Source: Entrophospora sp. SA101 (Eukaryota; Glomeromycota; Glomeromycetes; Entrophosporales; Entrophosporaceae). From it: 64,000 bases of DNA. The notes beneath the pieces are model-generated. The model worked only from the letters and a program-made list of their open reading frames with translations, made no database searches and had not been told where the DNA came from. Below, piece after piece: positions 30,743-64,000 of the stretch. The stretch spans positions 25,088 to 89,087 of the forward strand of contig CAUDNR010000702.1 of NCBI GenBank assembly GCA_958430865.1, read 5' to 3'. The position numbers and the translations under genes were made by a program. The first letter of the stretch is position 1. Each line of letters opens with the position of its first letter.

Positions 30743-31381
30743 TGTTCTTGAGAGTCTGAGTTCGAAAAAAACTGTTCTCGATAACTGTCACAACTGTCAC
30801 AAGTTACTTAGGTTGATTTGTCGATTCCTACCTTATTTTTTTTTTCTATGGGTACACCATATGTATATGTATCAAAGGTATGTATATATCGGGTATATAA
30901 CATATGTATATGCGCATATAACATATGTAGGTATCAGGAATATAACATAGGTAAGTATTGGGTAAGGACGAAGCTCAGTGCTTTGCAATTAGATATAGTA
31001 CATATAACATGGGTTAGTATCAGGTATATATCTTATAGGTATACCATAGTGAAGATTTTTTTTTTTCGTTTTGAATTGACCTATTGTAAGAAAAGCAACT
31101 ATTAACAGTGTGTAATTTTTTATTTAGGACAAAGGAAGGTATGTAGCCAACCTTTCCTCCGGAATCTGCAGACCTTTATCAACAACAAAGTTAGAGCGTC
31201 TGAATAGAGGACTTGGAGTGGTTACCAAGCTGTTATACCCAGTAATTCTCCTAGGCAATGGGCATATTGCACTTTGACTAGAAGTTACCCTAACCTTGCA
31301 AAATAAAAATACACCCATTTCCATTAGTGGAAACGACATAATTATGTCGTTTCCACTTAGTCTAGGTTATTCCCCCTCAGG
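30743..31381. other. Left end of contig B, no gene seen
   Basis: Contains repeated (C)ATATGTATATG/GGTATATA motifs at about 30855-31040 (TACCATATGTATATG, GGGTATATAACATATG, AGGTATATATC). No supported gene. Confidence 0.45.
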
Positions 31382-31569
31382 AGTGACGAGCGTTTTGCAT
31401 TTGCCTCGTCATTCGAGTGACGAGCGTTTTGCATTTGCCACGTCATTCGAGACTGTGGCTATTTTTTGTATATCAAATTGGTGATCCCGGGTGATTTAAA
31501 ATACAAGGCGCTCAGTGAGTTAGGTTATGAAGGAGTGACGTGCGTTTTGCATTTGCCTCGTCATTCGAG
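31382..31569. repeat. Three copies of a 36-bp palindromic repeat
   Basis: Copies at 31382-31417, 31416-31451 and 31532-31569 share the core CGTTTTGCATTTGCC between GTGACG(A/T)G and C(T/A)CGTCATTCGAG. In copy 1 the arms TGACGAG and CTCGTCA are perfect complements. The right arm of copy 2 (CACGTCA) pairs with the left arm of copy 3 (TGACGTG). Could be protein-binding sites or iterons near one end of the element. Confidence 0.75.
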
Positions 31570-31900
31570 CGCAGTCGATCGCAAAATTCAAGTCATGATT
31601 GATAGATGGCTTGAATACCCTTTTGAAAGTCAAATTCGATATCAATAATGTTTTAATCACTCATATAAATTTTCGTATATCGGTTTAGTGCTTCTAATCG
31701 ATTTCCGTTATAAATAAATCCCCGAATTAGGTTATGACGTAGCATCATAGTCCTTCTGCGTTTTCTATTATAACCCAAATTCGATAGCATTATTTGTATA
31801 CCGATTTGATAACCGTGACTGATTTCCGTTGCAATAAAATAACTGGGGTAGGTTATGAAGGAGTGTAAGCCTCATCGCGAGTTTGATCGGTCAAACATAT
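31460..31900. repeat. Degenerate repeats of about 120 bp
   Basis: Recurring blocks TTAGGTTATGA(A/C)G, GATTTCCGTT and TAT(A/C)CCGATTTGATAAC/TATATCGGTTTAGTG recur in the same order at about 31465, 31676 and 31796. The AGGTTATGAAGGAGTG block occurs at 31521 and 31851. There is no open frame. This is structured non-coding DNA upstream of the polymerase. Confidence 0.5.
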
Positions 31901-32224
31901 TTTATACGTCATTTGATATCACATGCTAGTGTCAAAGACACATATTATCTGGTTATGCTATCAAGTATGTCGCGTAATTGATATCGGTATATGCATCGCG
32001 TAATTGCTATCGGTATTGATTGCAGGTTGATGGGCGGAGTATATATTTATGAAGGCGTCTGATTTCTGCATTTTTAGTCTCCGCCATGTAACATTCATGA
32101 TCATCGTCACCTATAAGTAGCACTCCAGGAAAATGCTTATTTTGGCTTTTACGATGAATTCGATTGCGAGGGATGAGATACGAAGTGTCGAATTGCTATC
32201 AATTAATGCTATCTAGTTGCTAAC
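31901..32224. other. Non-coding leader, short direct repeats
   Basis: Includes TCGCGTAATTGATATCGGTA and GCATCGCGTAATTGCTATCGG as a tandem pair at about 31969-32015, and a GTGTCAAAGACAC palindrome at about 31929. No gene seen. Confidence 0.5.
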
Positions 32225-32750: not shown

Positions 32751-32928
32751 AAAGTTTTCTTTATCTCTATCACATTCATTTACATTCTCGCTAAAATATT
32801 TGATACATATTTTTTACTATCACTTACCACCAACTGAAAAAATTAATTTAAACTTTTCCAAACTATATTGTAATAATATAATCGAACAAAGATTGATACA
32901 TACCAATAAAAAAAACCAAATACCAAAA

Positions 32929-35900
32929 ATGAGCAAACAAAACGCACAAGTGATCAGGTACGGGGGCGGGGAAACTTTAGCCGGGATTCCAACTCGCAAT
33001 GATATTATTTCGGAATGCGATAATGGGTTAACAGCTATACTCCAACAAAATTTATCCGATAAACAACCTATACACTTCATGCCCAATGATGTAAGTGATG
33101 CCACTGAATATATAAATGGGGTATCTACATATATTCTACGTATTTACGGCTCTTTGATTAATGGGCAAAAGGCTAGAGTAGACATTACAGGGATCAAACC
33201 CTTCTTCGATGTCGCCATGCCTGATAACGAACCTTTATCTATATTCAAACCAAGATTAGTAAAAATTATATTGGGATCGGAAAAGATTGATAAATCAAAG
33301 TTTGGGATAAAAGTTATCCACGCGTATCCAATTCGTGGTTACCATACCGAGAAAAAGGTATATGTTTGTATCACTACATGGAATCATTATGATAGAACAC
33401 GAATCTTGAAAGAGGTTCGTAAACACAATATTGAAACGGCATCAGATGATATCACTAATGTTTATTATTATCGAAAAATAGCCCGTGAAGAAAAACTACC
33501 CCTTTCTGAGTGGGCTGTATTAAGCAATTATAATTACATATCAAATACAAATTCATCATATTATTTCCGTGTATCTGTAAATAATTTTCAACCTTTAGGG
33601 AATAACAGGCCAGATGATCAAATAGTATCTTCAGCTCTCATGCATGATCGAACTCTTGTGCTCACCTGGGATATAGAAACATATAGTAGTCGTAAGATGG
33701 GAGATTTACCTAATGCAAAAAATGACGAGGATCAAGTTTTTATGATTTGTATTACTGTACATTGGAAGGATGATCCAGTGCCAGTAAAGCAGATTTGTCT
33801 TGTTGACATTGAAATATCACCAGATCCAAATTGGGTTACGGTTGTCTGTGAAACTCAAGGAAATTTATTAAAAGCATTCGCTCTTTGTTGGAAAGCAATC
33901 ATGCCAGATATACAAATCGGGTTTAATGATTCACAGTATGACTGGCCTTTTATTATAGAAAAAGCCAAAAGTTTAGGTATTCTTGAATGGATGTTTAATC
34001 ATATGTCACCTGAATCATCCAACGTTGAAGAAATTATAAAATGGAAATATCGAAAAAGTGAGATAAAGATATCTGATGAGAAATTCTACTCAAAGTATCT
34101 TAAAATACCAGGATGTATACCTATTGATGTTCGTGCTTGTTTCAAAAAATTATATCTAAAATCAGAGGCGAGTTCACTTAAATATTATCTAGATGTCTGT
34201 GGGTTAGATGAAAAGGCAGATATGCCCATTCACATTATGAATAAGTATTACGAAGAAGCAATACTCCAACCCTCTGATGTTTCTGCAAAAAATATGCATG
34301 AAGTGGCAAATTATTGTATAATAGATGCACTGAGATGCCAAGAGCTTATGGTTAAACATAATGTAATCAATGACTATAGGGAAGTATCATCTATTGCATA
34401 TGTTTCTCTTTCTGATTCTCATTATTTTGCGGGGGGTATGAAAGTATGTAATCTTTTGGGAGCTGAAGCTTGGAGTAGTAGTATGTTGTGTAGTATGATT
34501 GCTTCAGAAAATACAGAATCTGGTAAATATCCAGGAGCTTATGTTATTACACCGATAAAAGGTCTGGAAAACAAACGTCCAGTAACAGGTTTAGATTTTG
34601 CCTCCCTATACCCAAGTCTTATAATGACATACAACCTTTCACCAGATAAAATCATACTATCCCGCGAAGAAGCGATAAATGTAATCCGTAGTGGAAAAAA
34701 AACCCACATGATTAAGTTTCTATTCAATGGTCGAACTATAGAAGCTTGGTCTATTCGCCATAATAATATACCTGAAGAAAAGGGATTATATGCTAGAGTG
34801 TTGGAAAATCTATTTAATAAACGAAAGAAGATGAAAGAAACCCTTAATGAATTGGATGATAAAAGTTTCGAATATAGTTGCTTAGACTCAAAACAAAAGG
34901 CGGTAAAATTATATATGAATACATTTTATGGTGAGGCAGGTAACAATCTCTCTCCATTCTATCAACTTCAGTTAGCAGGTGGAGTTACTTCTGCTGGGCA
35001 ACGTAATATTAAATTTGTTAGAAATTTTGTTGAAGATAAAGGGTTTGGTGTTAAATATGGAGACACCGATTCTTTATATCTCACATGTCCAGAAGAGTGT
35101 TTCCAGGAATGTGATCGAAAATATAAATTAGATCAACTCTCACAAGAAGAGTACTGGAAGGAAATGGTAAAAATATCTATGAAAGTGATGGCAAACCTCC
35201 GTAATGAAGTAAATACTGAACTTGAAAAAGACAATGGAACGCCTTACCTTAATATGGCATATGAAGAGGTCTTATTCCCCGTGGTATTTACAGGAAAGAA
35301 AAAATACTATGGTCTTGAGCATAAAAAGGAGCCAAATTTCAATCCGGGTAAGCTTTTCATTAAAGGGGTAGATATTGTGAAAAGAGGCCAATCTAAGCTC
35401 TTTCGTGATGTAGGTAAGGAAATTATGAATAGAACTTTGAAAGTCGGTAATGAGGAGACAATACACCAGATTGTTGAAAAAGTTCTTTGGGAAAATGTGG
35501 AAAAACTTTCCAAGTTAGATTATGATGAATTTATTCAGACATGTATATGGAGGCCTAAAAAGGAAGGTAAGCGGGGGAATATCTCTGTAGAACGGTTTGT
35601 TTCGCGAATGGGGGCTAAGTATTCTCGTGAAGTATTGGAAAATCAACAGCTTATAAAGAAGGGTTTACCCGCTAACGAATACCTATATAAAGTCCCCAAA
35701 CCCGGTGAACGAATTAGTTACATTGTAGTAGTACCTGAGGAGATTTATGATAACTGCGGGAAAAAAATACCACAACAAAAAGGAGACTGTATGGAATACC
35801 CAGATGTGGTAAAAAAGTTCAACAAGAAAATAAATATTGATTATTATATCGAAAGTCTATTTGGTCTCTGCGCCCATTTTATAAATTATGATGATAAATA

Positions 35901-36579
35901 TCAACCATCACCTGAATTCCTCTCAAAAGTCTTGGATCGTAAAAAGAAATCTAAGGAGAAGAAATTAAAAATTGCTAAGGATATATTGCAGAGCAATGAC
36001 TCTCCGAGTCTAGATGAAGATGAAATAGCAAAAATTAAAGATGAAGAGTCACAGAAGTCGGCTAAAAAATGGCTCAAAAATTATATCAAAGATTTACGTG
36101 ATGCTCCGAAAAAAGATGAAGTCATCATCTCCCATTTATGGAAAGATGCCATTATACATGCCGAAAAATTGTACTCTACTATGAATATTAGCAAAGCGGG
36201 TATAACTAGGCCTTCTACTTCAGGCGCTTCTACTTGGTATAATAATTATCTTAATGCATTAGATAAAATTGCAGACTCCATTCGTTTGAAATTATCAGAT
36301 CTACTTTTAGAATTGTCTAAGCTAAATGTCGAATATAGAAATGGGTTATATAAATTAATTACACAGGCGCAAAAACGTAAACCCAAAATTACAATTCTGG
36401 AACAATATATACTTCTATATGATTTGGGATCAGAGTGTCGAGAATTAATAGATTTCCGGAATACATTGCATAGGGTGGTTGGCCTTGAAATTACCCGGCT
36501 TCAAGCATTATCAATCACATATGGCAGTAAAAAAGATGACCCATCAGACATCGATGATATCATTGACCTATATTGTTAA
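32929..36579 (+). CDS. polB: Family-B DNA polymerase (RNA-primed, delta/NCLDV-like)
   Basis: Replicative DNA polymerase with 3'-5' proofreading, 1216 residues from ATG 32929 (the frame is open further upstream, but the AAAAATGAGC context and the start of conserved sequence favour this codon). Exonuclease motifs: Exo I WDIET (D248, E250), Exo II GFNDSQYDWP (about 331-340), Exo III YCIIDALR (D466). Polymerase motifs: A LDFASLYPS (D556), B KLYMNTFYG (660-668), C KYGDTDSLY (D712, D714), and KKKYY (790-794). It lacks the TPR insertions expected of protein-primed Polinton polymerases and resembles eukaryotic delta and giant-virus enzymes. The C-terminal about 200 residues are Lys-rich and end in DDIIDLYC, possibly a clamp-binding tail. 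Intronless and unbroken. Neighbours: hairpin array upstream, convergent membrane protein downstream. Confidence 0.93.
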   Translation: MSKQNAQVIRYGGGETLAGIPTRNDIISECDNGLTAILQQNLSDKQPIHFMPNDVSDATEYINGVSTYILRIYGSLINGQKARVDITGIKPFFDVAMPDNEPLSIFKPRLVKIILGSEKIDKSKFGIKVIHAYPIRGYHTEKKVYVCITTWNHYDRTRILKEVRKHNIETASDDITNVYYYRKIAREEKLPLSEWAVLSNYNYISNTNSSYYFRVSVNNFQPLGNNRPDDQIVSSALMHDRTLVLTWDIETYSSRKMGDLPNAKNDEDQVFMICITVHWKDDPVPVKQICLVDIEISPDPNWVTVVCETQGNLLKAFALCWKAIMPDIQIGFNDSQYDWPFIIEKAKSLGILEWMFNHMSPESSNVEEIIKWKYRKSEIKISDEKFYSKYLKIPGCIPIDVRACFKKLYLKSEASSLKYYLDVCGLDEKADMPIHIMNKYYEEAILQPSDVSAKNMHEVANYCIIDALRCQELMVKHNVINDYREVSSIAYVSLSDSHYFAGGMKVCNLLGAEAWSSSMLCSMIASENTESGKYPGAYVITPIKGLENKRPVTGLDFASLYPSLIMTYNLSPDKIILSREEAINVIRSGKKTHMIKFLFNGRTIEAWSIRHNNIPEEKGLYARVLENLFNKRKKMKETLNELDDKSFEYSCLDSKQKAVKLYMNTFYGEAGNNLSPFYQLQLAGGVTSAGQRNIKFVRNFVEDKGFGVKYGDTDSLYLTCPEECFQECDRKYKLDQLSQEEYWKEMVKISMKVMANLRNEVNTELEKDNGTPYLNMAYEEVLFPVVFTGKKKYYGLEHKKEPNFNPGKLFIKGVDIVKRGQSKLFRDVGKEIMNRTLKVGNEETIHQIVEKVLWENVEKLSKLDYDEFIQTCIWRPKKEGKRGNISVERFVSRMGAKYSREVLENQQLIKKGLPANEYLYKVPKPGERISYIVVVPEEIYDNCGKKIPQQKGDCMEYPDVVKKFNKKINIDYYIESLFGLCAHFINYDDKYQPSPEFLSKVLDRKKKSKEKKLKIAKDILQSNDSPSLDEDEIAKIKDEESQKSAKKWLKNYIKDLRDAPKKDEVIISHLWKDAIIHAEKLYSTMNISKAGITRPSTSGASTWYNNYLNALDKIADSIRLKLSDLLLELSKLNVEYRNGLYKLITQAQKRKPKITILEQYILLYDLGSECRELIDFRNTLHRVVGLEITRLQALSITYGSKKDDPSDIDDIIDLYC

Positions 36580-36680: not shown

Positions 36681-37691
36681 CTAATACCTAGCCCACACAT
36701 CCTGCAACTGCTCACTTTTCCTCTTCAATCCCCATGTACGTCTCAATACCACGAACCACATAACTGCGATAATTAATATAATAAGAAAAATATATGCTGA
36801 TAGCTGTGACATCAAAGAGGGGGTATAATTTTCCCGTTGTGCAAGGTGTGGATTCACATTCTTTATCTCTTGAACTGGTAATATATCTTTACTAATTTCG
36901 CTAATGATAGTTTCCTCATTTATCTTAGAGCTTATCTCAGTATCGACTTTTAATGGTTCAGTAATCTCGTCATGCCTCTTTGAGGCGCTTAAAGGCCTAG
37001 TATGATCCGAGATATTACCATCGATTTTTCCAGCTTGATCCATATTTTTTTTACGTATAAAATATTGACTGAGATTTTTGATAGGTTCAATAACTGCAGA
37101 TATATCATCAGACTTGGTCATGGAACTTTGTTCCTCGTACAGCGTATTTTTTTCGTCGTTTCCACCAACCACGGGTATTGATATAACCTCCGATTTCAGA
37201 CACTCAAGCTCATTAACTTTCGATTCCAATTCGCTCTTTATATTTTCTAATTCAGCTATTTTGGATCTAAGGGATAATATCTCAGAATCTTTTTTTAGTG
37301 AGTCGTTTTGAACCGAAAGCACATCCATCTGAGCCGATTTCAACTTACCTTCCAATATCTTGATCATAGACTCAAGTGATCTAATTTTCTTGGAATTTAT
37401 ATTGTTATCGGCTTTAAAACTTGCAAGAGAAATATCTTTGCTAGCATTTTTAATCTGCAGACGTTTAGTCTCAGCAATAAGCTCCAGATCATGGGCACGT
37501 AAATTCTGAATCGCAGTATTGGATTCATCTACTGTCTGACTCCATTTTTTTCTCTCCTGTTCCCAACCTTTCCGTTCACGATCAAACCCCTGATCTTGCT
37601 TTATGCACCTGTCTTGTAATTTTTTATTACGAGAATTTAATCCAGATATAACTTTTACAATACGAGATTCTTTATCTTGCACATTGGCCAT
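36681..37691 (-). CDS. Coiled-coil protein with C-terminal membrane anchor
   Basis: 336 residues. From about residue 15 to 185 the sequence is a long charged coiled coil (heptad-rich, for example SLESMIKILEGKLKSAQMDV). A Ser/Asp-rich linker follows. Near the C-terminus there is one hydrophobic segment (AYIFLIILIIAVMWFVVL, about 299-316), then a basic RRTWGLKRKSE tail of about 20 residues. The topology suggests a tail-anchored membrane protein. It converges on the polymerase gene (about 100 bp apart). Function unknown; a virion-membrane or host-membrane tether is only a guess. Confidence 0.65.
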   Translation of the reverse strand: MANVQDKESRIVKVISGLNSRNKKLQDRCIKQDQGFDRERKGWEQERKKWSQTVDESNTAIQNLRAHDLELIAETKRLQIKNASKDISLASFKADNNINSKKIRSLESMIKILEGKLKSAQMDVLSVQNDSLKKDSEILSLRSKIAELENIKSELESKVNELECLKSEVISIPVVGGNDEKNTLYEEQSSMTKSDDISAVIEPIKNLSQYFIRKKNMDQAGKIDGNISDHTRPLSASKRHDEITEPLKVDTEISSKINEETIISEISKDILPVQEIKNVNPHLAQRENYTPSLMSQLSAYIFLIILIIAVMWFVVLRRTWGLKRKSEQLQDVWARY

Positions 37692-38075: not shown

Positions 38076-38582
38076 ATGGGTCGTATTCATAAAGAATATT
38101 ATAGCGCTAATGCGAGATTTTTATCAGTTGAGGCAATCAAAGATATTAAAACATCACCCGGTAGAGTACCTGATGCTATAAATTCTATGGCAAAAAAATA
38201 TCGTATATCCTATGTTCGAGCCGAAGATTATATTGAAAATCGGGAGCGTAAACAACAAATGATATACTCTCATTCATCTCAACCATCTATACTTGTAAAT
38301 GATTACTTGCCAAACACTGAAATCCCTGGACAAAATATAAATAATGATTTCCATCTCGATTCTCAATCGCAAGACACCAAAATAACTTTGCATAGCTCTG
38401 CTGATATTCCAGATAAACAGACGAAAAAGAGGCGATCGAAGTCCAAATCTGTACGAATTTCTGATCCATCCACTAATAGTGATAGCCAACTTGAAAAGGT
38501 ATTAAATGAGGGAGAGAAACGAATAGAAAGTTCAGATCATATATTAAATAGTCTCTCTGTGTCTATCACCAGCAATTCTTAA
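38076..38582 (+). CDS. Small basic protein, possible helix-turn-helix
   Basis: 168 residues. The N-terminal third (DAINSMAKKYRISYVRAEDY) has the spacing of a short helix-turn-helix such as those seen in resolvase-like or transposon DNA-binding proteins. The middle is Ser/Asp-rich and contains a basic cluster (KQTKKRRSKSKS) that could be nuclear localisation or DNA binding. I recognise no family. It is divergent from the coiled-coil gene and convergent with the protease frame (95 bp between stops). Confidence 0.55.
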   Translation: MGRIHKEYYSANARFLSVEAIKDIKTSPGRVPDAINSMAKKYRISYVRAEDYIENRERKQQMIYSHSSQPSILVNDYLPNTEIPGQNINNDFHLDSQSQDTKITLHSSADIPDKQTKKRRSKSKSVRISDPSTNSDSQLEKVLNEGEKRIESSDHILNSLSVSITSNS

Positions 38583-38676: not shown

Positions 38677-39645
38677 TCACGCATTTTTTTTTAAAGTAGA
38701 ATTGGTAGATTCTAAGCTAAAATCCGTAGGAGCGTGCCATTCTTCCTCCAATGATTCATTACCCCCCTCATTACTATCAACTTCTTGAGAAATTTGATCG
38801 GATACCAAAGGCTTATCATTCTGAGATGCGGTAGCGCAATTTACTTCGAGCTTATTCTTGACTTTATGCATAGTTACTGGAATAATGTGATCCTTCCCAT
38901 TGAAAGGAATTTTCAATTCATCTTTCCCCCAATCTATAGCGCATTTATATTTCTTGAGAAGTGGGTTTGGGAATATCAATGTTGGTTTAGGAACACGTAC
39001 AACTACAAAATCTTCACGTATAGTAAAACCTGGAGGGAATGTTATTGGGAAATTACGAGCAATACCGATAGATTCTGTTGGAACTGTAGCAACACCACTA
39101 AGATCATATTTTTCTGATTTATCAATCGGCCAATTTACACGTTTAACAATATCTTCTGACGTAATTGGAGGTTCAGCCCCACTATCGAGTACCAATGCTG
39201 GAATTTTTAAGCGTTTGATTTTAACTGGTATAGTTGCAAGGCTTGTGGTAGGTTCCTTTCTTCGAACAAAATCTATCTCCATAGGATCGTTCAGTGTCTC
39301 CTCTTCGTCATCTGATTCGGGTATTTCTGGGGCCGGCTCTCGATAATTTAAGCACGAAGTGCCCTGCTTTGCAGTAAAGTCAGGTTTTGCAGGCCTTGGG
39401 GCGACTCTTCGAGTCATAGATAAATTCGTATTATTAATATTGTTTTTAATCGTTTCTATAACCTCTGGATCGTTAAACATAGCTAGAATAATTTTTCGAA
39501 TTTGTGAGTCGATAATCATACCTGATTTCTTTTGTATTTTTTGTGAAGAGCGTTGAATCGGAGATTCGAGACTCTGTCTCTTCTTTGAACCAGACTTTTT
39601 AGATAATGATTTATCCGATTTACTCTTTCGCTTTACTTGTTTTTT
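38677..39645 (-). CDS. Retropepsin-like aspartic protease (Pro), -1 frame of Gag
   Basis: The frame is open without a stop from the slippery heptamer at 39639-39645 to 38677. An internal ATG lies at 39519, but coding-like basic sequence (KRKSKSDKSLSKKSGSKKRQ) extends upstream of it to the Gag overlap. The protease core is IPALVLDSGAEPPI, with the D-S/T-G-A catalytic aspartate of retroviral and LTR-retrotransposon proteases, and a later hydrophobic IPVTMHKVKNKLEVN segment. Expected role (family knowledge): a dimeric protease processing the Gag-Pro polyprotein. The tail is acidic (ESLEEEWHAPTDFSLEST). No reverse transcriptase, RNase H or integrase follows in this frame, unlike a normal Ty3 polyprotein. 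Confidence 0.75.
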   Translation of the reverse strand, partial: KKQVKRKSKSDKSLSKKSGSKKRQSLESPIQRSSQKIQKKSGMIIDSQIRKIILAMFNDPEVIETIKNNINNTNLSMTRRVAPRPAKPDFTAKQGTSCLNYREPAPEIPESDDEEETLNDPMEIDFVRRKEPTTSLATIPVKIKRLKIPALVLDSGAEPPITSEDIVKRVNWPIDKSEKYDLSGVATVPTESIGIARNFPITFPPGFTIREDFVVVRVPKPTLIFPNPLLKKYKCAIDWGKDELKIPFNGKDHIIPVTMHKVKNKLEVNCATASQNDKPLVSDQISQEVDSNEGGNESLEEEWHAPTDFSLESTNSTLKKNA

Positions 39646-42185
39646 TTTGATTTAGAGACGTGTACATCAAAACTATGATCAGATTCAACTTCAGATGAGG
39701 AATCCCCAGAATCGGAGTTATTATCTGAAGAATCGTTACCTGAAGAATCGTTATCTGAAGAGTTTGTATCTGAACCCGAATCTACAGCAACCTTATTAAC
39801 ACTGCCTCTTTTTTTGGATCTACTCTTGGACCTTTTCTTACGAGTACACTTACGAGAATTATGCCCAGTCCTGTTGCAATTTGAGCACCTATGTTTGGAT
39901 GATTTCTTAACAACGGCATGTATCAATTTCATTGCTTTAGCTATTTTCGCTTGATTGATATCCAATTCCTCGAATTGTAATCTCAATTCTTCAACCGGGT
40001 CATAATCATACCCCTCTCCAGGTAAACTCGTATCAACCGGTAAACTCTCTAAAAAACGGTCTACAGCAAGATCATCAGCTTTTCGTTTCCCTGGGCCGGG
40101 TTTTTTCGATAAAGTCCGCTTTGCTCCAGCCATTGTTTCCTTCAAACCCAGCACTATATCATAAAGTTTTTTGAAATCATCTCGCGAAACAGAGTTATCA
40201 TTAGCTTGTATCTCCTGAGACTTAGAAGGGTTCACGGGGGTCATATCACTCGAGTGTTTATTTTTTTCATGAGGATTGGGTGTTGGAAATACTGGAAAAG
40301 AAGATGGCGTGGTCACTTGAGCTAATGTATATTTTTCCGCCTCTGCCAATGCTGTTGTAATGTTGTCCTGAGAATCATGAAATTTAGCCATCATACGTAA
40401 ATTATATTGATTCATAGGAGATAACCCACGAATAAATTGCTCCCTTTGTTGCTGGGGAGACATTCCAGCAAGTTTACCAAGCTTTTTTATTTTATTACTA
40501 AATTCTTCCACTTGCATAGATCCTTGCATAAGCTGACCAAAGATGGCCATTTGTTTTTGCGCCTCCACTGTAGTATAAAAATATCGAAGTCTGTATATTT
40601 TTTGACCGAGCTTCATACCAGGTGCAATTGTAACATTAGGAAATCCTCCACCACCATTTGGTGCCACTGGTGCATCATTTACTGGCATTCCACCTGCTAT
40701 AGACCAATCCTCATTCCATGTTCCATTTGGAATTAGATTAGCCCCAGTTGCTATTCCTGCACCAATTCGACCAATTTCTGCACTCGCCTCATTACGAAAT
40801 TCGCCAGCAGTATTTAAACCACCTATCTGATTACCTCCATTTCCAGCACCGAGTGTACGAATTGCAGTTATAGTAGCTACTCCTAAGTTATCAGAAATAT
40901 TATTGCATTTCCAATTCTTGCCTTTGATATTAGTTTCATACCAATTTAATGCTGGACCTTCAAGACATGATTCGAATAAGCCATCTGCTTCTGCTCTCCC
41001 GGCCACACCACCTGCACCAGCTGTCACATTTATTCGAGAAGCTACTACATATCTTTGAAAATCTCTAAGAAAATCTTCCGGATCTTCTCCAGGATTACCT
41101 CTAAAAATTGGGGGTCCGTATCCTACCATTCCTGATATATGTTGGTTATTTAGTAATGGATTATTCTGTAGCGCAAAAATTTGTTGATTTAAATTCAAAA
41201 TATTCTGATTTTGGTTCGTAATTAATTGACCATTATTTCGGCATCGTCTTTTCCACTTACCCCATTTAGTATCAAGCTGAATATCGCTAAGAAGTAAATC
41301 ATCCCGGCATGTATCTAACTCTTGTCGCAGGGCTCTAGCATAATTCTGAGATTGTTGTAATCGATGGCTATAATTGCGCAATAATAATTGAGTGGCGAAT
41401 TTCTCACGTAGTAATGTACCAACTCGCCTATGTTTATCTTTATATGAATAGAACCAGTGCCTACGTTCATTCTTTTCATTATGATAGGCCAAAAGTAATA
41501 TTCTATAATCACCTTCAGCTTGGGTTATACCGGTATTTAACCTTCTAATATCTTGGTTCTTTTGATTGACTTGGACTTGTGCCTGATCTGCCCGATTCTT
41601 TTCCCAGTCCAAAATTTCTCGAAGCCTTTTTACAGCGTTTTTTATATCATCAAATTCGCGATCAATAATACCTCTGGGGATTGTAGATACAGGAGTTCTC
41701 TGAAATATACTATTGATATTATTGAATGTATTGCGAACAGATTCCGTAATTGTCTGTGCCTCACCAGGGGCAGGTGCTCGAATTTGTTGAGCCATATCTG
41801 GGTTATCTTTATGAATATATTTATGGGATGATATTTCATGAATTCGAATTTTAAGGCTCTCTACTTCACTTTCTAGATTGGATATTTGTGTATCCCGATA
41901 TACTATGAATTCTTCTTTTTTATCTACATCCTTTAAAGCTATTCTGAGGCATTTTTCAAGATCAGATACTTGGGTTTTTAATTCCCGAATCTCTGACTCA
42001 TGAGCTATAATAGTGCTATCCTGGAATGAAATAGTCCTATGGCAACTCTCAACTTCTTTTATGAGGTCGCGGATTTTTTTCTCATTCACTTGGTTTATAG
42101 CTATTTCGCTTTCTAACTCTTTGCGCAACCTCCGGTTAGAATCTAGCAGTTGTAAATATCCTGGATCGAATTCAAAATTCGCCAT
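39633..42185 (-). CDS. Ty3/LTR-retroelement-like Gag with zinc knuckle
   Basis: 850 residues. The N-terminal about 130 residues are coiled coil (LEKCLRIALKDVDKKEEFIV), with a second coiled region near 185-290. The Gag capsid-type region starts near 361 with FRGNPGEDPEDFLRDFQRYV and GPALNWYE. After an about 120-residue Gly/Asn/Ala-rich insertion it resumes with MQVEEFSNKIKKLGKLAGMS and QREQFIRGLSP. This bipartite pattern matches the retrotransposon Gag family. A CCHC knuckle CSNCNRTGHNSRKC lies near 763-776, followed by an Arg/Lys- and Ser/Asp-rich tail. Expected role: particle assembly and nucleic-acid binding. Its start is 43 bp from the divergent integrase. Unusual features are the long coiled-coil N-terminus, the inserted low-complexity block, and the absence of a downstream RT. 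Confidence 0.85.
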   Translation of the reverse strand: MANFEFDPGYLQLLDSNRRLRKELESEIAINQVNEKKIRDLIKEVESCHRTISFQDSTIIAHESEIRELKTQVSDLEKCLRIALKDVDKKEEFIVYRDTQISNLESEVESLKIRIHEISSHKYIHKDNPDMAQQIRAPAPGEAQTITESVRNTFNNINSIFQRTPVSTIPRGIIDREFDDIKNAVKRLREILDWEKNRADQAQVQVNQKNQDIRRLNTGITQAEGDYRILLLAYHNEKNERRHWFYSYKDKHRRVGTLLREKFATQLLLRNYSHRLQQSQNYARALRQELDTCRDDLLLSDIQLDTKWGKWKRRCRNNGQLITNQNQNILNLNQQIFALQNNPLLNNQHISGMVGYGPPIFRGNPGEDPEDFLRDFQRYVVASRINVTAGAGGVAGRAEADGLFESCLEGPALNWYETNIKGKNWKCNNISDNLGVATITAIRTLGAGNGGNQIGGLNTAGEFRNEASAEIGRIGAGIATGANLIPNGTWNEDWSIAGGMPVNDAPVAPNGGGGFPNVTIAPGMKLGQKIYRLRYFYTTVEAQKQMAIFGQLMQGSMQVEEFSNKIKKLGKLAGMSPQQQREQFIRGLSPMNQYNLRMMAKFHDSQDNITTALAEAEKYTLAQVTTPSSFPVFPTPNPHEKNKHSSDMTPVNPSKSQEIQANDNSVSRDDFKKLYDIVLGLKETMAGAKRTLSKKPGPGKRKADDLAVDRFLESLPVDTSLPGEGYDYDPVEELRLQFEELDINQAKIAKAMKLIHAVVKKSSKHRCSNCNRTGHNSRKCTRKKRSKSRSKKRGSVNKVAVDSGSDTNSSDNDSSGNDSSDNNSDSGDSSSEVESDHSFDVHVSKSKKNK
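39639..39645 (-). promoter_or_regulatory. Candidate -1 ribosomal frameshift site A-AAA-AAC
   Basis: On the minus strand a run of nine A followed by C places A-AAA-AAC exactly in the Gag zero frame, two codons before the Gag TAA stop at 39633-39635. The protease frame is the -1 frame and is open through this point. A-AAA-AAC is one of the canonical eukaryotic slippery heptamers (known from retroviral gag-pro junctions). I do not see an obvious GC-rich stem downstream. Confidence 0.7.
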
Positions 42186-42228
42186 TTATTTCAACCCTAA
42201 TTTATTATTAGAGTAAAATGCATTGAAA
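42186..42228. promoter_or_regulatory. Bidirectional intergenic region, Gag and integrase
   Basis: Only 43 bp of AT-rich sequence separates the divergent starts of Gag (minus) and integrase (plus), so both must be expressed from this very short region or from signals inside the genes. The right-hand integrase copy also approaches the window edge in an orientation where the same arrangement could lie just outside. Confidence 0.45.
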
Positions 42229-43253
42229 ATGAGCAAATTGAGCAAGCCTATTATCAGAATCGATCCTAATGATGAATTAGCTTTAGTTTGCAAGTTATTG
42301 TTCTATCAACCCACAGGTTATCATTCCAATGCTCGATCATTACATAAAGACCTCAAGAAGGAAGGATATAATTTCCCATATAAAAAGGTTCGTGAATGGT
42401 TGCATAACCAGAATGAATGGCAAAAATACGCTCCATCGCCAAAAGAGACTCCACGGGTTAGTTATGGTAAAATTCAAAAACCAAATTGTGTACATCAGTG
42501 TGACCTCTTATTTCTTACGCATGATTTCTATAAAGGTAAAAAATGGAAAGCAGTATTACAAATTATAGATGTGAGTAGCAGGTTCAAGGCAAGTGTTCCT
42601 CTAACATCGAAGAATAGTTCCGAAGTTGCTAAAGCATTCAGGAAAATTTATGATAATCCCAATAACCCTCTTACGTATCCGACACTTCTACAATGTGACC
42701 AAGGCAAAGAATTCATGGGTGAAACGGCTCGACTAATGGAAGCACATGGTGTAATAATCCGAGTAGTTGATGCATATAGCCATCGAGGACTAGCCCTTGT
42801 AGAACGATTCAATAAGACATTAGCAGAGATGCTTTATAAAATCCAGTATGCCGTCGAATCGATATCTAAAAATCCTAAATTAATAAGAGAGTGGGTCAAG
42901 TATTTGCCAGAAGTTATCGATTACCTAAATAATTATCCAACACGTCTTATTAGAGCTCCTGGATCCTCGAAGTGGGGGTTAGCACCAATAAAAGCCATCA
43001 AATTAGAAAAGGTTGAATCTCGGCCATCCACAAAATATAAACGTCCTGTTGGGAAAAATGAGGAGAATAAGTTAAAGAAGGGCGATACAGTTCGTTACCT
43101 GCTTGCTAATGCAGAGTGGGAAGGAGGTATGGAAACAACACGCCGGGCGACAGATCCTGTATTTTCGCCTTCTATCCATAAAATTCGAAAAATTGTAGTA
43201 ACGAAAAATGAACCAGTTTTATATTATCTCGGAGATGATGACGATGAATATGC
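42229..43253 (+). CDS. Polinton/Maverick-like DDE integrase, 3'-truncated by gap
   Basis: Starts at ATG 42229. An N-terminal helix-turn-helix-like region ([31 protein letters not shown]) is typical of Polinton-type integrases. The catalytic core has D92 (VHQCDLLFL), D157 (LQCDQGKEF) and E192 ([11 protein letters not shown]), a D-x34-E spacing, and a C-terminal SH3/chromo-like part ([18 protein letters not shown]). It integrates DNA by strand transfer (family knowledge). It is nearly identical at DNA level to the inverted copy at 62380-64000 but stops at the N-gap, so the nuclease domain of that copy cannot be checked here. Confidence 0.9.
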
Positions 43254-43263
43254 NNNNNNNNNN
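43254..43263. other. Assembly gap (10 N)
   Basis: Joins contig B to contig C inside or just after the integrase gene. Linkage of the polymerase/Gag half with the helicase/ATPase half depends on this scaffold join. Confidence 0.99.
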
Positions 43264-44284
43264 AAAACGAATCTTGCAAAATAGATATGGGTTTAGTGAG
43301 GATCAAGTGGAAGCCTTATTCTCTGCCCAGGAAAACGAAAGTAGGTTCGGAGAATCATTGCTTTGCAGGACTGAAGGAACGACCCTAAAGGGTTATAAGA
43401 CCGTAAATATGTGTCAAGACACTAGCTCCGCTACTGCGGTTTCCAACAAACCCTCAAAAGGAATGGAGGAAGAAACTATTGGAGATATGGTGCAACGGAT
43501 TTTACGAAATAAACTTAGCATGAGAGATGTAAGAGCCGAAGCTTATGCCTTAGCCCTATCAGCAAAAAATGCCAATGCTGGTTCATCACATCTCTCTCGT
43601 CTTCGTAGAGAATTAAGGAACCTTAATGCATCACTTGAGATAATCGAAGCTACAAAATTTCCAGATATTACAGAAGATGCTAACAAAATCCAGAGTGATA
43701 ATTGGAAAAAGGCTAAAACCATTAATTATCCAGATGAATTTACATTAGAATCGGTCTAAGAAAGATTAGATGTGTATGATTTAAAAACCCCACCTAATTA
43801 TCAGGCTCTTGCTGATGTTATGGTGATGCTTTGTATCCGCCCTGCTGAACTTACAACTTTATGTATTACAGACTCTGGAGTGACAGGTTATGCGAAGAAT
43901 TGAGGTCAGCCAGGTATTCCTAGAAAATTTAGATCTATGGAGAAGGATCAAGAACGAGCCAAAGAACTACTCACTTGGATTCAGCATGCTATATCATCTG
44001 GATGAATGGGTGATCCAGGTAAGCCAGGAGTTAAATGGTTCAATAAATTCTTAAAAGATTATGATTTAATTCCTAAATATTTACGTAAATTAGGAGCAGT
44101 TTACGGTGCAGTATTACATAAAGCTGAGAACCCAGCCCACGTCTATACCATTGCTGGAGAATGTCTACACCACAATTCCGACAACCATACTTCACCTGTG
44201 CAAAATTACGTTGTAGTCAATTATAGAAAAAGAGGAGTTCCTTATGAACAAGCAAGACCATTTCATATCTATGATCAAGATTAA
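43264..44284 (+). pseudogene. Tyrosine recombinase remnant with three in-frame stops
   Basis: Collinear with the intact recombinase at 47683-48771: YGFSEDQVEALFSAQE matches its N-terminal part, then LSRLRRELRNLNASLEIIEA, VMVMLCIRPAEL and ELLTWIQHAI. A single frame is kept throughout but is interrupted by TAA 43757-43759, TGA 43901-43903 and TGA 44003-44005. The first two stops align with Gln and Arg codons of the intact gene, so both fit C-to-T change. The C-terminus diverges and the catalytic Tyr region is not conserved. A GTGTCAAGACAC palindrome lies at 43411-43422. Dead copy. Confidence 0.8.
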
Positions 44285-44293
44285 TTACGCTTC

Positions 44294-56605: not shown

Positions 56606-56625
56606 AAGCTCTTGGTGACCTTGAT

Positions 56626-58543: not shown

Positions 58544-58915
58544 ATGGTTTGTGAAATAATATTTATCTATTTATTAATGTATAACTTATTTATCTATTTA
58601 TCTATTTATTAATGTATAACTTATTTATATATAATTTATCATCTGAGAGCTGGTATTTTTTTTTTATTTTTCTGGGATATATATATATATATATTCAAGC
58701 TTAGCGGAGTTAGTTCCACTAAAAAATCTCGATCATAATTTATTTTCTTTATTACGCAATTAATGATTTGATCTCTTTTTCCAGATCTAGAGGATTCATC
58801 TTCAATTTTTTACAAAAGTGATCAGCGTGATTTTTTATTTTAACCAACTATCTCCGTATATTGAATATATCGATCTCTTATATAAAAAAATATTATTGAT
58901 CATAGTAACGGAAAA
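58544..58915. other. Intergenic with short tandem repeat
   Basis: TTATTTATCTATTTATTAAT-type repeats at 58555-58640 and an AT run at 58678-58692. A TAGCGGAGTTAG block at 58703 echoes the CTAGCTCCGCTA motif found elsewhere in the element. No gene. Confidence 0.4.
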
Positions 58916-59266
58916 ATGTCTTATGAACTACGTGATCAGGTTTCCAAGTATATAGGATTCAACCCTGAAGAAATCCGCCTCCCAGTTACGGATGAAGATA
59001 GACAACTATTTCAAGAATTAATAGCAGATCAAGAGAAGATGATAGATATTGTGATGGACGAGTATCGATTTTTGCTTCATCACGGACATAACTACAAGGG
59101 CGGGGAATCAATACATATAATGTGGGTATATATATGTACTGAAAAAGATGCTGAGAAAGTATTGATAGATGTACCTCCATCGAAGATATTATCTAGAAAA
59201 GTTTTAGCCCACATCGAAAAAAGATTCAAAGACCTTCCACTCGCACCAGTTTTTATAGTTGATTAG
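58916..59266 (+). CDS. Unknown 116-residue acidic protein
   Basis: Starts at the ATG in AAAAATGTCT. Balanced composition with NPEEIRLPVTDEDRQLFQEL and EKDAEKVLIDVPPSKILSRK; no membrane segment, zinc cluster or family recognised. Its context is a compact run of small genes between the Crinkler-like unit and the ATPase. Confidence 0.5.
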   Translation: MSYELRDQVSKYIGFNPEEIRLPVTDEDRQLFQELIADQEKMIDIVMDEYRFLLHHGHNYKGGESIHIMWVYICTEKDAEKVLIDVPPSKILSRKVLAHIEKRFKDLPLAPVFIVD

Positions 59267-59761: not shown

Positions 59762-60343
59762 ATGTTTCATCCTGATTACAACCCCATTATATCGAAGCTT
59801 CCAAAAAGTCTAGTCAAGAGGGTATATCATAGGCTTTTATATCGCTCCAGGTTACCCATTACACCAGAGCTAATTTCCGAAAAATGCGATCGAATTGAGG
59901 CTTATTTGTATCATACATTAGAGGTATATGAAAAAGGATTAAATCGAAAACGTAAAAAACAAATCCAAACTATAGAACTACTTGAAAATTTATCATATAA
60001 TAACAAAACTAGTGTCAAGACATATATAGATATGGCTAATCAAGAAACCCAAACCCAGAATATTAATCCGATCTCCACCTGTAATCAGGCACGTAAGTGT
60101 CCTTGCTTCGCATGTGAGGAAGAAATCAATCGTCGTGTTAAGAAAGAATTAGATATTTTATGTCGACGATTACTTGAATATAATGAAGAAACTTTTGGTA
60201 AATTTATGCGAGAAATTACTATAGAGCATGAAAAGCGGGTTAATGAAAATAAGAAATTGCGATATGAGGTTGAAGAAAAGAGGATAGAATTACAAGAGGC
60301 AGAAAAATCCCTAAAATATCTGAAATCCCGCTCTATTCATTAG
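59762..60343 (+). CDS. Unknown protein with CxCx2C cluster and coiled coil
   Basis: 193 residues from ATG 59762. The N-terminus is basic and helical ([20 protein letters not shown]). A CPCFAC cluster lies near residue 113, followed by about 75 residues of charged coiled coil ([20 protein letters not shown]). It overlaps the 3' end of the convergent ATPase gene by 11 bp, showing tight packing. Function unknown. Confidence 0.55.
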
Positions 60344-61100
60344 GACTTTCAAGAATTTTATCCCAACCAATTCGTATTCTGTGTGGATGTTCAGGAGGTA
60401 CACTTAGATCGAAGACGATAAATTTCTGTTCACATAGATACTTATTAACAATTTTATATACATTGCGCCAGTCGTTAACATATAAACGAAGTATTCTGCT
60501 TAACTCATCTGAGGTACAAGAGCCGTTAAAAATTACAACATATTTTAAGTTTTTCCTTATTAGTCCCGGGCAGTCAAAATAGCTTTGTGAAACATACATT
60601 GAAGAAACATTGGAATGGCGCCCCTCAGTAAAATAGGGTATAATCTTCTCCTGGATTTTTTTCGGTTCAGTACATACATCCTCAAATATAGCTACAGTGC
60701 CTCTTTCTGGAGAAAATGAATCCAGCTTTGGAATTTTATCAGGCTTCATAGCCCGGAATGTAATATCTTCACGATGTGGCTCTGGACTATTAGCAATTAT
60801 TTGATATACTGATTTAAGATACATATATTTGGGTTCCTTGAGATGGTGTCCAATAAGTACGACATCATCACATTTAATATATCTAACACCCCCTTTTTTA
60901 CCGTTAAACATTCTATATAGTTTATTCCCAGACAAAAGACGAACAACTTCTCTAGATTTTCCTGAGTTAGTTCGACCGCAGATTAAGCATGTGAAGGGCC
61001 ATTGAGGTGTACTGTTTTTTGAGTTATATTTTTCTGGATTCTTGTATTCGTCTATATTTAGAACAAGCTTCTCGAGTGGATCAAGCTTTTTTATTTTCAT
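60333..61100 (-). CDS. A32-like (FtsK/HerA-type) packaging ATPase
   Basis: 255 residues. Walker A GRTNSGKS (residues 42-49) follows the strand PFTCLIC; Walker B VAIFED (136-141) is followed by [20 protein letters not shown], the sensor/SQ region of A32-type ATPases, and [12 protein letters not shown]. These enzymes pump DNA into capsids in giant viruses, Polintons and virophages (family knowledge), so its presence argues that the element is or was packaged. Full length for the family and unbroken. It is convergent with the CxCx2C protein and divergent in function from the neighbouring F-box gene. Confidence 0.87.
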
Positions 61101-61216
61101 TTTAATCGAGATAAGTCACTAATTATTATATCGAAAAAATATTGATCCTTATTGTTATATATATTCACCCGATTTTTTATTCTATGTAGTCTAATAAATG
61201 CGACATAGTAAATCAC

Positions 61217-62359
61217 TTAAGGCTCTCTAATATCAATGCGTGGATTGCTAGTCATAAGAGCATCGATTGCCTCATCAGTAACAGAGTAACATTTTTTGAG
61301 ATCAAGACTACGCAGGTTCTTACATGATCGAATAATTTCATGAATTGATATATCACTAATAAAGCAATTTAGAAGAAGTAGCACTTCTAGTCTTGGGCAT
61401 GATCTTGCTATTTCACAGATAGACTCGTCGGTTATATAACACCAATCCAGATTGAGGCTTCGGATACTTGGGCACGATTGTGCAATTTTTTTAACTGATA
61501 TATCACTTACCCCACAACTCTCAAAAGAAAAATCTATAATATTTCGGCATGAAGTAGCGATCGCACAAACCCCCACATCGGAAATACCTCCACAAGACAT
61601 TAGTCTCAAATGTTGGAGTCCAGGACAGGAATACGCTACTGCTTTTAATGTCTCATCTGTAATACTGCAACACCACAAACTAAGATAACGTAATTTGGGA
61701 CAGGAATGTGCGATATCAATCATAGATATATCGGTGATATGTTTATTGTGTCCCAGACTGAGATAGTTTAAGTTTGGACACGAATCGGCGATTTTGCTTA
61801 AAGATTTATCAGAGAGTTTAGAAGAACCGAGACTTAGATATTCCAGATTTCGGATTGCAATTCCACAAAGTATTCTGTCATCAATATATATAAATTTACC
61901 AGAGACCCCCTTTTTAGTGTTGTTAAAATCAAATTCTAAATGTTTTAGATTAGGCCACATTTTCAAAGAATCTGCAGTTGATTCATAAGAAAAACCATTA
62001 CAGCCGTTAAGAATGAGACATTTCAATCCGGAGGTTTCGCAAGCAATCTTGATTAAGGTTCGATCTGAAATTTTACATTCGTGAAGAATGAGTCGCAATA
62101 GCTTAGAATGGTAAAGAGGTTTTTGTTTCCCACGCATCACTTTCTTGAATTTTTCGAATTGTACTAGATTTCTTTTATCAAACACCGCACAACGCCAGAT
62201 AATCGGCCCTGCACATGAATACCAAAATTTATTGACGAATAAGGTCGGATACAATGATCTATCTTCAGCTAAATTCAAGAAAATTTCGGTTAATATTTCA
62301 GGTAAGTTTAGTGGATGTAATTTAACCACAAAGTGACTGCTTCTAGCAATATATGACAT
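61217..62359 (-). CDS. F-box/LRR protein (intact)
   Basis: 380 residues. The N-terminal F-box-like segment (LNLPEILTEIFLNLAEDRSL, YPTLFVNKFWYSCAGPIIWR) is followed by about ten leucine-rich repeats of the cysteine-containing type (CPNLNYLSLGHNKHITD, CPKLRYLSLWCCSITDE, CRNIIDFSFESCGVSD, CPRLEVLLLLNCFISD). The family are substrate adaptors of SCF ubiquitin ligases, so a role in host protein turnover is likely, perhaps host-derived. It lies 20 bp from the end of the integrase-nuclease gene and is same-strand. The paralogue at 49050-49879 is broken. Confidence 0.85.
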   Translation of the reverse strand: MSYIARSSHFVVKLHPLNLPEILTEIFLNLAEDRSLYPTLFVNKFWYSCAGPIIWRCAVFDKRNLVQFEKFKKVMRGKQKPLYHSKLLRLILHECKISDRTLIKIACETSGLKCLILNGCNGFSYESTADSLKMWPNLKHLEFDFNNTKKGVSGKFIYIDDRILCGIAIRNLEYLSLGSSKLSDKSLSKIADSCPNLNYLSLGHNKHITDISMIDIAHSCPKLRYLSLWCCSITDETLKAVAYSCPGLQHLRLMSCGGISDVGVCAIATSCRNIIDFSFESCGVSDISVKKIAQSCPSIRSLNLDWCYITDESICEIARSCPRLEVLLLLNCFISDISIHEIIRSCKNLRSLDLKKCYSVTDEAIDALMTSNPRIDIREP

Positions 62360-62379
62360 TGGTATTTAAATTTACGAAT

Positions 62380-64000
62380 TTATTCTATATTTGATAAATA
62401 ACCTTTTTCGATCAATTTACTCTTTATATATATTAATAAATCACAGTCAAACGGGATTTCGATGAGACATATACCTTGCTCCTTGCATATATCCCGCTTT
62501 TTTTGATCTCTGATTTTTTGTTGTTCCAAGTCTATCTTGCCTCGCTTATGGAACATTGGATTCTCGGAAAAATGTTGAGGTCCCTGGAATTCGTATGCCA
62601 ATTTTAATTCTTCATTATATCCATCTAATTGCATCCCATTCAAAAATGACGGTTTACAAGATGGAAATTTTTTACCTAACAAATCTTCGAAAATATACCT
62701 CGCGGATCTCTCACCTTTATTATGATGACATAGGGGACACCATTCGAATTTCCGCTCTAAAACTTCTAATGGATACTCAAACTGATGCTTCCCGTTTTCA
62801 CAGGACCAGAGATATACATCGAAACCATTTATTTGGCCAGTTTTACCACGACATTCTCCGCCACGCCTCTCAGCATATGCAACGGCTTTAGACATTTTAT
62901 TAATAATACGAACGAAATTAATAGATCTGGAACGAGTGTTTTCTTCCAATATACTCTGGGGTGGATACTGAAGCGTATCGATATTCACATATAAGAGTTC
63001 CTCTTTCACAAACCCCCGCTTTGGTGTAAACTCATCGCCTTCGAGATAATATAAAATTGGTTCATTCTTCGTTACAACAATTTTTCGAATTTTAAATAAA
63101 GTTGGACTCCATACCGGATCCGTGGCTCTTTTCTGATTCTCCATACCTCCTTCCCACTCTGCATTAGCAAGCAGGTAACGAACATTATCCCCCTTTTTTA
63201 ACTTATTTTCCTCATTTTTTCCAACAGGACGCTTATATTTTGTGGATGGCCGAGATTCAACCTTTTCTAATTTGATGGCTTTTATTGGTGCCAACCCCCA
63301 CTTCGAGGATCCAGGAGCTCTAATAAGACGTGTTGGATAATTATTTAGGTAATCGATAACTTCTGGTAAATACTTGACCCACTCTCTTATTAATTTATGA
63401 TCTTTAGATATTGATTCAACGGCATACTGGATTTTATAAAGCATTTCTGCTAACGTCTTATTGAATCGTTCTACAAGAGCTAATCCACGATGACTATAAG
63501 CACCAATTACTCGAATTATGACATTATGCGCTTCCATTAATCGAGCAGTTTCGCCCATGAATTCTTTACCGCCGTCATATTGTAGAAGTGTCGGGTATGT
63601 AAGAGGGTTATTGGGATTATCATAAATTTTCTTAAATGCTTTAGCAACTTCGGAACTATTCTTCGATGTTAGAGGAACACTTGCCTTGAACCTGCTACTC
63701 ACATCTATAATTTGTAATACTGCTTTCCATTTTTTACCTTTATAGTAATCATGCGTAAGAAATAAGAGGTCACACTGATGTACACAATTTGGTTTTTGAA
63801 TTTTACCATAACTAACCCGTGGAGTCTCTTTTGGCGATGGAGCGTATTTTTGCCATTCATTCTGGTTATGCAACCATTCACGAACCTTTTTATATGGGAA
63901 ATTATATCCTTCCTTCTTGAGGTCTTTATGTAATGATCGAGCATTGGAATGATAACCTGTGGGTTGATAGAACAATAACTTGCAAACTAAAGCTAATTCA
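62380..64000 (-). CDS. Polinton-like integrase fused to zinc-ribbon and PD-(D/E)XK-like nuclease, start outside window
   Basis: Frame open from the window edge ([10 protein letters not shown]) to 62380; by comparison with 42229 only about 14 codons are missing. The DDE core matches the other copy ([36 protein letters not shown]). After the SH3-like region an extra about 200 residues follow: a zinc-ribbon-like segment ([27 protein letters not shown]) and a nuclease-like domain ([34 protein letters not shown]). That D...EFQ order resembles endonucleases known as solo proteins in giant viruses. The fusion of an integrase with a second nuclease is unusual. The gene is inverted relative to the 42229 copy. 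Confidence 0.88.

What the first reader, a model, noticed from the sequence alone, without database searches (positions are those of the whole stretch)
30743..64000. Virus-like element mixing giant-virus replication genes, a Polinton-like integrase and a retroelement Gag-Pro
Seen: delta-type PolB, D5-type helicase, A32-like ATPase, Polinton-like DDE integrases, tyrosine recombinase, Ty3-like Gag and retropepsin, in compact mostly intronless blocks. Known: Polintons carry protein-primed PolB, Ulp1-type protease and capsid genes, and LTR elements carry RT. Neither description fits. Inference: a new class of large DNA element, or an endogenised virus that captured gag-pro, or nested elements.
Basis: partly seen in the sequence, partly recalled or inferred. 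Interest (0 to 1): 0.92.

Follow-up and report, generated by a model that had tools for sequence, protein, structure and literature searches.

The report
Fungal DNA element with retrovirus capsid
A soil fungus that lives with plant roots carries dozens of copies of a virus-like DNA element that has its own DNA-copying enzyme and, where a DNA virus would be expected to have its usual shell gene, genes for the Gag shell protein and protease otherwise known from retroviruses and their relatives.

The parts
30733..30742 (.). 10-N scaffold gap; the finding starts just after it
   Evidence: C638:55820-55829
32800..36579 (+). asfarvirus-type family B DNA polymerase, one open frame; likely ATG at 32929 (counted by eye)
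36681..37691 (-). ccTM: coiled-coil protein with C-terminal transmembrane helix (read by eye), convergent with polB
38076..38582 (+). orf168, small HTH-like ORF (HTH by eye) kept in place at low identity
38677..39651 (-). pro: retropepsin-like protease, in the -1 frame of gag
   Evidence: C1863 homologue just over the Asp_protease_2 cut-off
39633..42185 (-). gag: N-terminal coiled coil, retroviral-type CA (about 356-625), CCHC zinc knuckle (by eye)
39639..39645 (-). poly-A heptamer A AAA AAC in gag phase at the gag-pro overlap
42223..43253 (+). int1: rve-like integrase, cut by the N gap
43254..43263 (.). 10-N scaffold gap separating the left block from the gap-free right piece
   Evidence: C638:68341-68350
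43277..44227 (+). broken YR-like gene of another YR family (2 TGA, 1 TAA in the matched part)
44433..44433 (.). junction at which the helicase-end sequence of several other copies begins to match
44638..45114 (+). orf158, gene next to the helicase
45343..47400 (+). D5-type (DUF5906) primase-helicase
47683..48771 (+). tyrosine-recombinase-like ORF (motif by eye; no Pfam hit)
49238..49879 (+). LRR cargo gene
50462..51505 (+). RING-finger cargo gene, 94% protein identity in C566 and C660
57917..58543 (+). orf208, conserved, function unknown
58886..59266 (+). orf126, function unknown
59762..60343 (+). orf193, conserved next to A32
60333..61100 (-). A32-like packaging ATPase
61217..62359 (-). LRR protein, cargo
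62380..63999 (-). int2 fused to a zinc-ribbon/endonuclease-like domain (by eye); the open frame continues past the window

Best explanation
This is one copy of a multicopy family of integrating, virus-like DNA elements of arbuscular mycorrhizal fungi. Its conserved core is A32 ATPase - integrase (with an endonuclease-like domain or gene) - gag - pro - HTH-like ORF - coiled-coil/TM protein - polB, in several loci with a D5-type helicase and a tyrosine recombinase at the other end. Shown by sequence: the recurrent order, a predicted retroviral CA fold of the window Gag, a -1 gag-pro overlap at a poly-A run, purifying selection, an asfarvirus-type PolB, and exchange of PolB type and of Gag parts between copies. 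Inferred: the element is copied as DNA by its PolB with the helicase; Gag and Gag-Pro (by -1 frameshifting) assemble a retrovirus-like particle matured by the protease; the A32 ATPase moves the DNA into it; the integrase inserts the DNA. In effect it is a Polinton-like element whose jelly-roll capsid and Ulp1 protease are replaced by Gag and retropepsin.
Confidence: 0.72

Rival explanations
1. The core element is real, but Gag-Pro is not its capsid: it was captured and kept for another job, such as binding element RNA, transfer of RNA between cells as in Arc, or blocking rival retroelements.
For: PEG10, the best solved match, and Arc are domesticated Gags. No virion evidence. Gag differs far more between copies than polB does in the pair compared (C638 against C1399: gag 31% identical, polB 91%).
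Against: CA, zinc knuckle, protease and frameshift-type overlap are kept together, as particle building and maturation need; an A32 packaging ATPase is kept beside them; no other capsid candidate was found in the gap-free 30 kb by Pfam, though orf158, orf126, orf193 and orf208 were not folded.
Confidence: 0.22
2. Two elements lie side by side: the A32-int-gag-pro-ccTM-polB element and a separate helicase-tyrosine recombinase element; the window joins them by insertion.
For: 15 of 22 listed helicase copies have a YR within 4 kb, but only 3 of 22 have A32 within 16 kb. A junction at 44433 borders another YR family.
Against: The same convergent YR-A32 arrangement at 8-13 kb in C638, C566, C1863, C1446 and C1676, 5 of the 7 YR places that have A32 within 16 kb (C566 and C1863 are close relatives). 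The far relative C896, not among the 22, has helicase, A32 and pro in the same order three times. Helicase ends share sequence with polB ends.
Confidence: 0.38
3. Endogenised pieces of an asfarvirus-like giant virus of AM fungi that happened to capture gag-pro and an integrase.
For: Asfarvirus-type PolB; a 1.5-Mb asfarvirus-like region is reported in Rhizophagus irregularis (PMC10640383, abstract and passages seen).
Against: Dozens of places with a fixed gene block; a PF03175-type polymerase replaces the asfarvirus-type one in the same layout; the reported scattered polB regions had no A32, D5 or major capsid gene found; PF04451 gave no match here, but its control rang nowhere either, so this says little.
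Confidence: 0.12
4. The arrangement is an assembly or amplification artefact.
For: N gaps, inverted arms, and identical gag and ccTM stretches next to diverged polB and int in C638; amplified nuclei were used for this strain in the published work seen.
Against: Random joins cannot give one order and strand pattern in many copies at 30-60% protein identity, or related genes on shared records in other genera. It may well explain the inverted duplication in this window.
Confidence: 0.04
5. Gag-pro is a nested remnant of a Ty3-like LTR retrotransposon.
For: Gag with CA and zinc knuckle followed by a protease, the order usual in LTR elements.
Against: gag lies head to head with int (about 40 nt apart in the window) and in the same place in the copies read; no RT among the Pfam hits of the window ORFs scanned; dN/dS well below 1.
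Confidence: 0.02

Closest known systems
Polinton/Maverick elements and adintoviruses (features from recall; papers on them seen only as search listings)
   Same: Integrating DNA elements with rve-type integrase, own family B polymerase and A32-type ATPase; three related loci carry a protein-primed-type PolB; the far relative C896 has a chromodomain ORF beside pro.
   Different: The window copy has an asfarvirus-type PolB; no Ulp1 peptidase match on the contigs studied; no jelly-roll capsid candidate found; Gag and retropepsin in their place.
Ty3/gypsy and retroviral gag-pro
   Same: Coiled coil, CA fold, CCHC knuckle, aspartic protease in the -1 frame at a poly-A run.
   Different: No RT or RNase H found in the block; integrase on the opposite strand, head to head with gag; neighbours are PolB and A32.
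Asfarvirus-like sequences of AM fungi (PMC10640383, abstract and passages seen)
   Same: Many scattered asfarvirus-type polB genes per genome.
   Different: There the scattered regions were described as encoding only PolB and/or an mRNA-capping enzyme; here polB sits in an element with int, gag-pro and A32.
Composite giant transposons such as Teratorn (PMC10175614; search listing only)
   Same: Virus genes joined with a transposition gene.
   Different: Teratorn is described in the listing as a fusion with a piggyBac-like transposon; I know of no Gag in it (recall).
Crypton/YR elements of fungi (recalled)
   Same: Tyrosine-recombinase-like gene; YR units also occur apart.
   Different: Coupled to a D5-type helicase and, in five loci, to the A32 block.

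Membership tests
Polinton/Maverick | rve-type integrase | tested here: met
   PF00665 at 18-32 bits, each just or well under the cut-off of 32.6 in own copies; many relatives carry a precomputed PF00665; D, D and E seen in int1, int2 and C1365 (by eye), third acid lost in C1399 and C1863
Polinton/Maverick | protein-primed PolB (PF03175) | tested here: not met
   Window PolB is PF00136, asfarvirus-type; PF03175 over the cut-off in the same order in C235, C1437, C1591, three of six places
Polinton/Maverick | A32/FtsK-type packaging ATPase | tested here: met
   Window copy 20.5 bits (cut-off 22.8), C1863 copy 39.1; 53 places
Polinton/Maverick | Ulp1-type cysteine protease in the element | tested here: not met
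   PF02902: 26 matches in the genome, none on C638, C1399, C1365, C2085, C325, C1585, C1863, C566, C660, C235, C1437, C1591 or C896; diverged or missing ends not excluded
Polinton/Maverick | double jelly-roll major capsid and minor capsid genes | tested here: inconclusive
   No candidate among Pfam hits of the window ORFs scanned; PF04451 none, but its control rang nowhere; small unknown ORFs not folded
Polinton/Maverick | terminal inverted repeats and short target duplications | tested here: inconclusive
   Inverted shared sequence between polB ends and helicase ends of different contigs; no target duplication found
Retroviral/LTR Gag-Pro | CA fold | tested here: met
   Foldseek top four rows are PEG10 CTD at E 0.04-0.11 with probability 1.00; only the window type of Gag was folded, and the match is clearest for the C-terminal half
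Retroviral/LTR Gag-Pro | gag-pro expressed through an overlap with a frameshift site | tested here: met
   -1 overlap with poly-A run in 8 of 8 copies; in-phase heptamer listed in 6 of 7; frameshifting itself not testable here
LTR retroelement | reverse transcriptase and LTRs | tested here: not met
   No RT in Pfam scans of the window ORFs; no room between genes in five blocks; LTRs not searched for as such
Nucleocytoviricota (asfarvirus-like) | asfarvirus-type PolB | tested here: met
   in the tree the ASFV row sits on a long branch with open position
Nucleocytoviricota (asfarvirus-like) | NCLDV major capsid, RNA polymerase, VLTF3 | tested here: inconclusive
   None among Pfam hits of the window ORFs scanned; PF04451 control failed; RNA polymerase and VLTF3 not searched genome-wide

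The most novel reading that the evidence does not exclude
A lineage of double-stranded DNA viruses or self-replicating DNA transposons of AM fungi that package DNA copied by their own PolB in a retrovirus-type Gag capsid, matured by a retropepsin and filled by an A32 ATPase: a union of the DNA-virus replication and packaging module with the retrovirus capsid module, whose polymerase has been exchanged between protein-primed and asfarvirus types while Gag-Pro was kept.
Probability: 0.5. Interest if true: 0.97.

Novelty: categorically new. Interest (0 to 1): 0.9.

Why it matters
Capsid type and replication mode are the two features by which deep virus groups are told apart. To my knowledge no DNA virus or DNA transposon has been described with a retroviral Gag-Pro as its shell; four full-text searches listed none (open-licence papers only, listings only, so this is weak). 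If right, capsid modules can cross between retroelements and DNA viruses, the scattered asfarvirus-like polB genes of AM fungi get a concrete mobile carrier, and there is a testable candidate for DNA-virus-like particles in a major plant symbiont.

Tried and rejected
Nested LTR remnant: rejected (see rivals). Delta-type PolB: rejected. Relatives in IMG/VR: gag, A32, PolB and an integrase alignment gave no confirmed locus; the gag alignment had no usable conserved stretch. Integrase relative P0270 in bacterial and archaeal species genomes: 54 stretches matched a pattern, none confirmed, so the unnamed relatives around P0257-P0290 are probably not prokaryotic. PDB sequence searches for pro, A32 and int gave nothing useful. 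Termini: DNA searches from the polB side and the helicase side did not give one clean terminus. A genome-wide gag search did not complete (12 tries), so gag counts rest on the int-pro spacing and on the copies read. Folding of the second CA type (A5, A6) was never accepted: queue full.

Rows dropped before counts. polB list: 27 places from 69 rows (fragments merged; C1892, C1395, C783 left out as cellular-looking or broken pieces). pro list: 61 from 70 rows (four split matches merged; the weakest five left out). int 45 plus endo-only 13 from 80 rows; A32 53 from 77 rows; ccTM 57 from 84 rows; helicase 22 from 70 rows (C896 and matches to parts or the C-terminal tail left out); YR 39 from 95 rows: in these lists fragments were merged and weak or partial rows left out by hand. 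Some contigs are near-identical duplicates (C566/C660 over 11.8 kb; probably C235/C1437), so copies are not all independent. The tool calls its tables lower bounds. The polB tree used 51 of the 120 listed relatives plus 3 own copies.
Full report
WHERE IT IS. The window is G000:C638:25088-89087 of a 101-Mb genome in 2123 contigs, 25-38% GC in the window. The gag homologue P0002 of Entrophospora sp. SA101 sits on an NCBI contig of 30,345 bases, exactly the length of the gap-free piece C638:68351-98695; the source is therefore most likely that AM fungus. For strain SA101 a published assembly used MDA-amplified nuclei scaffolded with Nanopore contigs (PMC6987183, passages seen). Whether G000 is that assembly or a later one is not known. 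C638:1-25087 is withheld and reads N.

LAYOUT AND ITS TRAP. C638 carries 10-N gaps at window 30733-30742 and 43254-43263. The left block (polB, ccTM, orf168, pro, gag, int1) is an inverted copy of C638:88119-98665 (96% over 9258 bp plus 81% over 1108 bp). gag and ccTM are identical between the two, pro differs by dS 0.016, int by dS 0.21; polB matches at 87% and 78% protein identity in its two large pieces. This mosaic could be recombination between copies or an assembly effect. The right piece alone is gap-free and reads: a broken YR-like gene, orf158, helicase, YR, LRR, RING, a decayed stretch with a Crinkler-like ORF, orf208, orf126, orf193, A32, LRR, int2 fused with an endonuclease-like domain, gag, pro, orf168, ccTM, polB running off the contig end.

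RECURRENCE. C1399, C1365 and C2085 have A32 - int/endo - gag - pro - orf168 - ccTM - polB in the same order and strands; orf168 matches are weak (E 1e-5 to 1e-6), C2085 keeps only the C-terminal part of int, and C1365 has frame breaks in polB and A32. C325 and C1585 have int to polB, C1863 A32 to orf168. Genome-wide, of 61 protease places (list reduced as told), 32 have ccTM downstream on the same strand within 4 kb (3 downstream opposite, 1 upstream), 13 polB downstream on the opposite strand within 9 kb and none otherwise, 26 int upstream on the opposite strand within 6 kb (1 other placement, C204), and 17 A32 upstream on the opposite strand within 9 kb (4 other placements). The int-to-pro gap is 2.2-3.1 kb in 25 of 26 and 4.1 kb in one, room for gag. 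In one search, polB and ccTM lie within 3 kb in 15 of 27 polB places, int and A32 within 4 kb in 27 of 45 int places, polB and int within 12 kb in 7 of 27, helicase and YR within 4 kb in 15 of 22; uniform placement would give 0.08-0.31 such pairs.

MODULE EXCHANGE. Gags of C1399, C325 and C1863 share the N-terminal coiled coil with the window Gag (40-46% over about 245 aa) but not a BLAST-detectable CA, while C1365 and C2085 resemble the window Gag through CA and tail; so there are at least two CA types. The part of the C235 Gag that was read has an N-part 94% identical to C2085 (191 aa) and a CA 58% identical to C1399 (292 aa). C235, C1437 and C1591 have PF03175 polymerase matches over the cut-off (41.1, 40.7, 27.6 bits against 25.8) where other copies have PF00136, with int and pro in the same order and strands; they are 3 of 6 PF03175 places. 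gag was read only in C235, and C235 and C1437 may be near-duplicates. C896 has helicase, A32 and pro in the same order three times, two of them 12.4 kb apart, with a chromodomain ORF next to pro on the other strand (58.7 bits).

POLYMERASE. The best PDB match of the window PolB is a chain named 'DNA polymerase' (8ywg, E 5.5e-235; ASFV polymerase by recall), against 1.3e-25 for a pol delta chain (6s1m); the ASFV cluster P0171 is 41% identical over 84% of the query. In an unrooted quick tree of 54 rows, 28 rows (3 from this genome, 24 named AM-fungal, 1 unnamed) form one clade (SH-aLRT 99); the ASFV row is a long branch of open position. The window copy pairs with Gigaspora rosea (95) and C1399 falls outside that pair, which hints at movement between hosts, though slow evolution is not excluded. 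The earlier report on R. irregularis found 15-33 polB copies per genome in regions with only PolB and/or an mRNA-capping enzyme, and no A32, D5 or major capsid gene in five strains.

ENDS. polB ends (C1365, C2085) and helicase ends (C956, C566, C660, C1565) share sequence in inverted orientation; the longest pair, C956 against C1365, has 334 columns at 81% and 147 bp at 85%, including what looks like a small Cys-rich gene and the starts of the neighbouring genes (by eye). This fits terminal inverted repeats, but no single contig shows both ends, and no target duplication was found. In the window the helicase end is cut at 44433.

OTHER FUNGI. The named gag relatives come from Entrophospora, Rhizophagus, Gigaspora, Diversispora and Cetraspora (all AM fungi, by recall); the rest are unnamed. 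Records of equal length carry gag and polB (Gigaspora rosea 142,917; R. irregularis 4,428,036), gag and int (R. irregularis 2,366,058) or polB and int (R. irregularis 77,382; R. clarus 1,155,017). Equal length is taken as the same record; distances are unknown.

MECHANISM. Shown: gene content, order, predicted fold, overlap, selection, exchange. Inferred: DNA replication by PolB and helicase, Gag particle, protease maturation, A32 packaging, integrase insertion; ccTM may anchor or release particles. Weak points: integrases of the C1399/C1863 type lack the third acid yet evolve under constraint, so they may not cut DNA; helicase-YR units also occur alone; no expression or particle data.

LITERATURE. 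TE papers on R. irregularis list 'Maverick' families among recent expansions or newly found families (PMC8647823 and PMC11075540, passages seen); some of these may be this element. Full-text searches for Gag with Polinton, PolB, integrase or tyrosine recombinase in DNA elements listed no description of it (listings only).

Noticed in passing
C235, C1437, C1591 (G000): Protein-primed-type PolB (PF03175) sits where the asfarvirus-type polB sits in other copies, with int and pro in the same order; gag read in part in C235.
   Followed up: partly
C896 (G000); L039: Far relative with helicase, A32 and pro in the same order three times, two of them 12.4 kb apart head to tail, and a chromodomain ORF beside pro on the other strand.
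   Followed up: partly
C1399 and C1863 integrases (L017, L023): Third catalytic acid replaced (E to K) although dN/dS between the two is 0.12.
   Followed up: no
C335, C633, C1499 (G000): Matches to the helicase N-part lie about 2.05 kb from Ulp1-type peptidase matches: possibly another element family.
   Followed up: no
window 43277-44433: Broken YR-like gene of a family with about 20 copies, ending near the junction where the helicase-end sequence starts.
   Followed up: partly
window 55021-55389: Crinkler N-terminal domain just over the Pfam cut-off (24.8 against 24.6), in a decayed stretch inside the element region.
   Followed up: no
window 27495-28583: ORF with a ribosomal protein S2 domain left of the element, probably a host gene.
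   Followed up: no
C956:93031-98912 (G000): Helicase-YR unit with no gag-block gene in my lists nearby; a 140-bp sequence that ends at the same junction base as in the window (44433) lies at its far end.
   Followed up: partly
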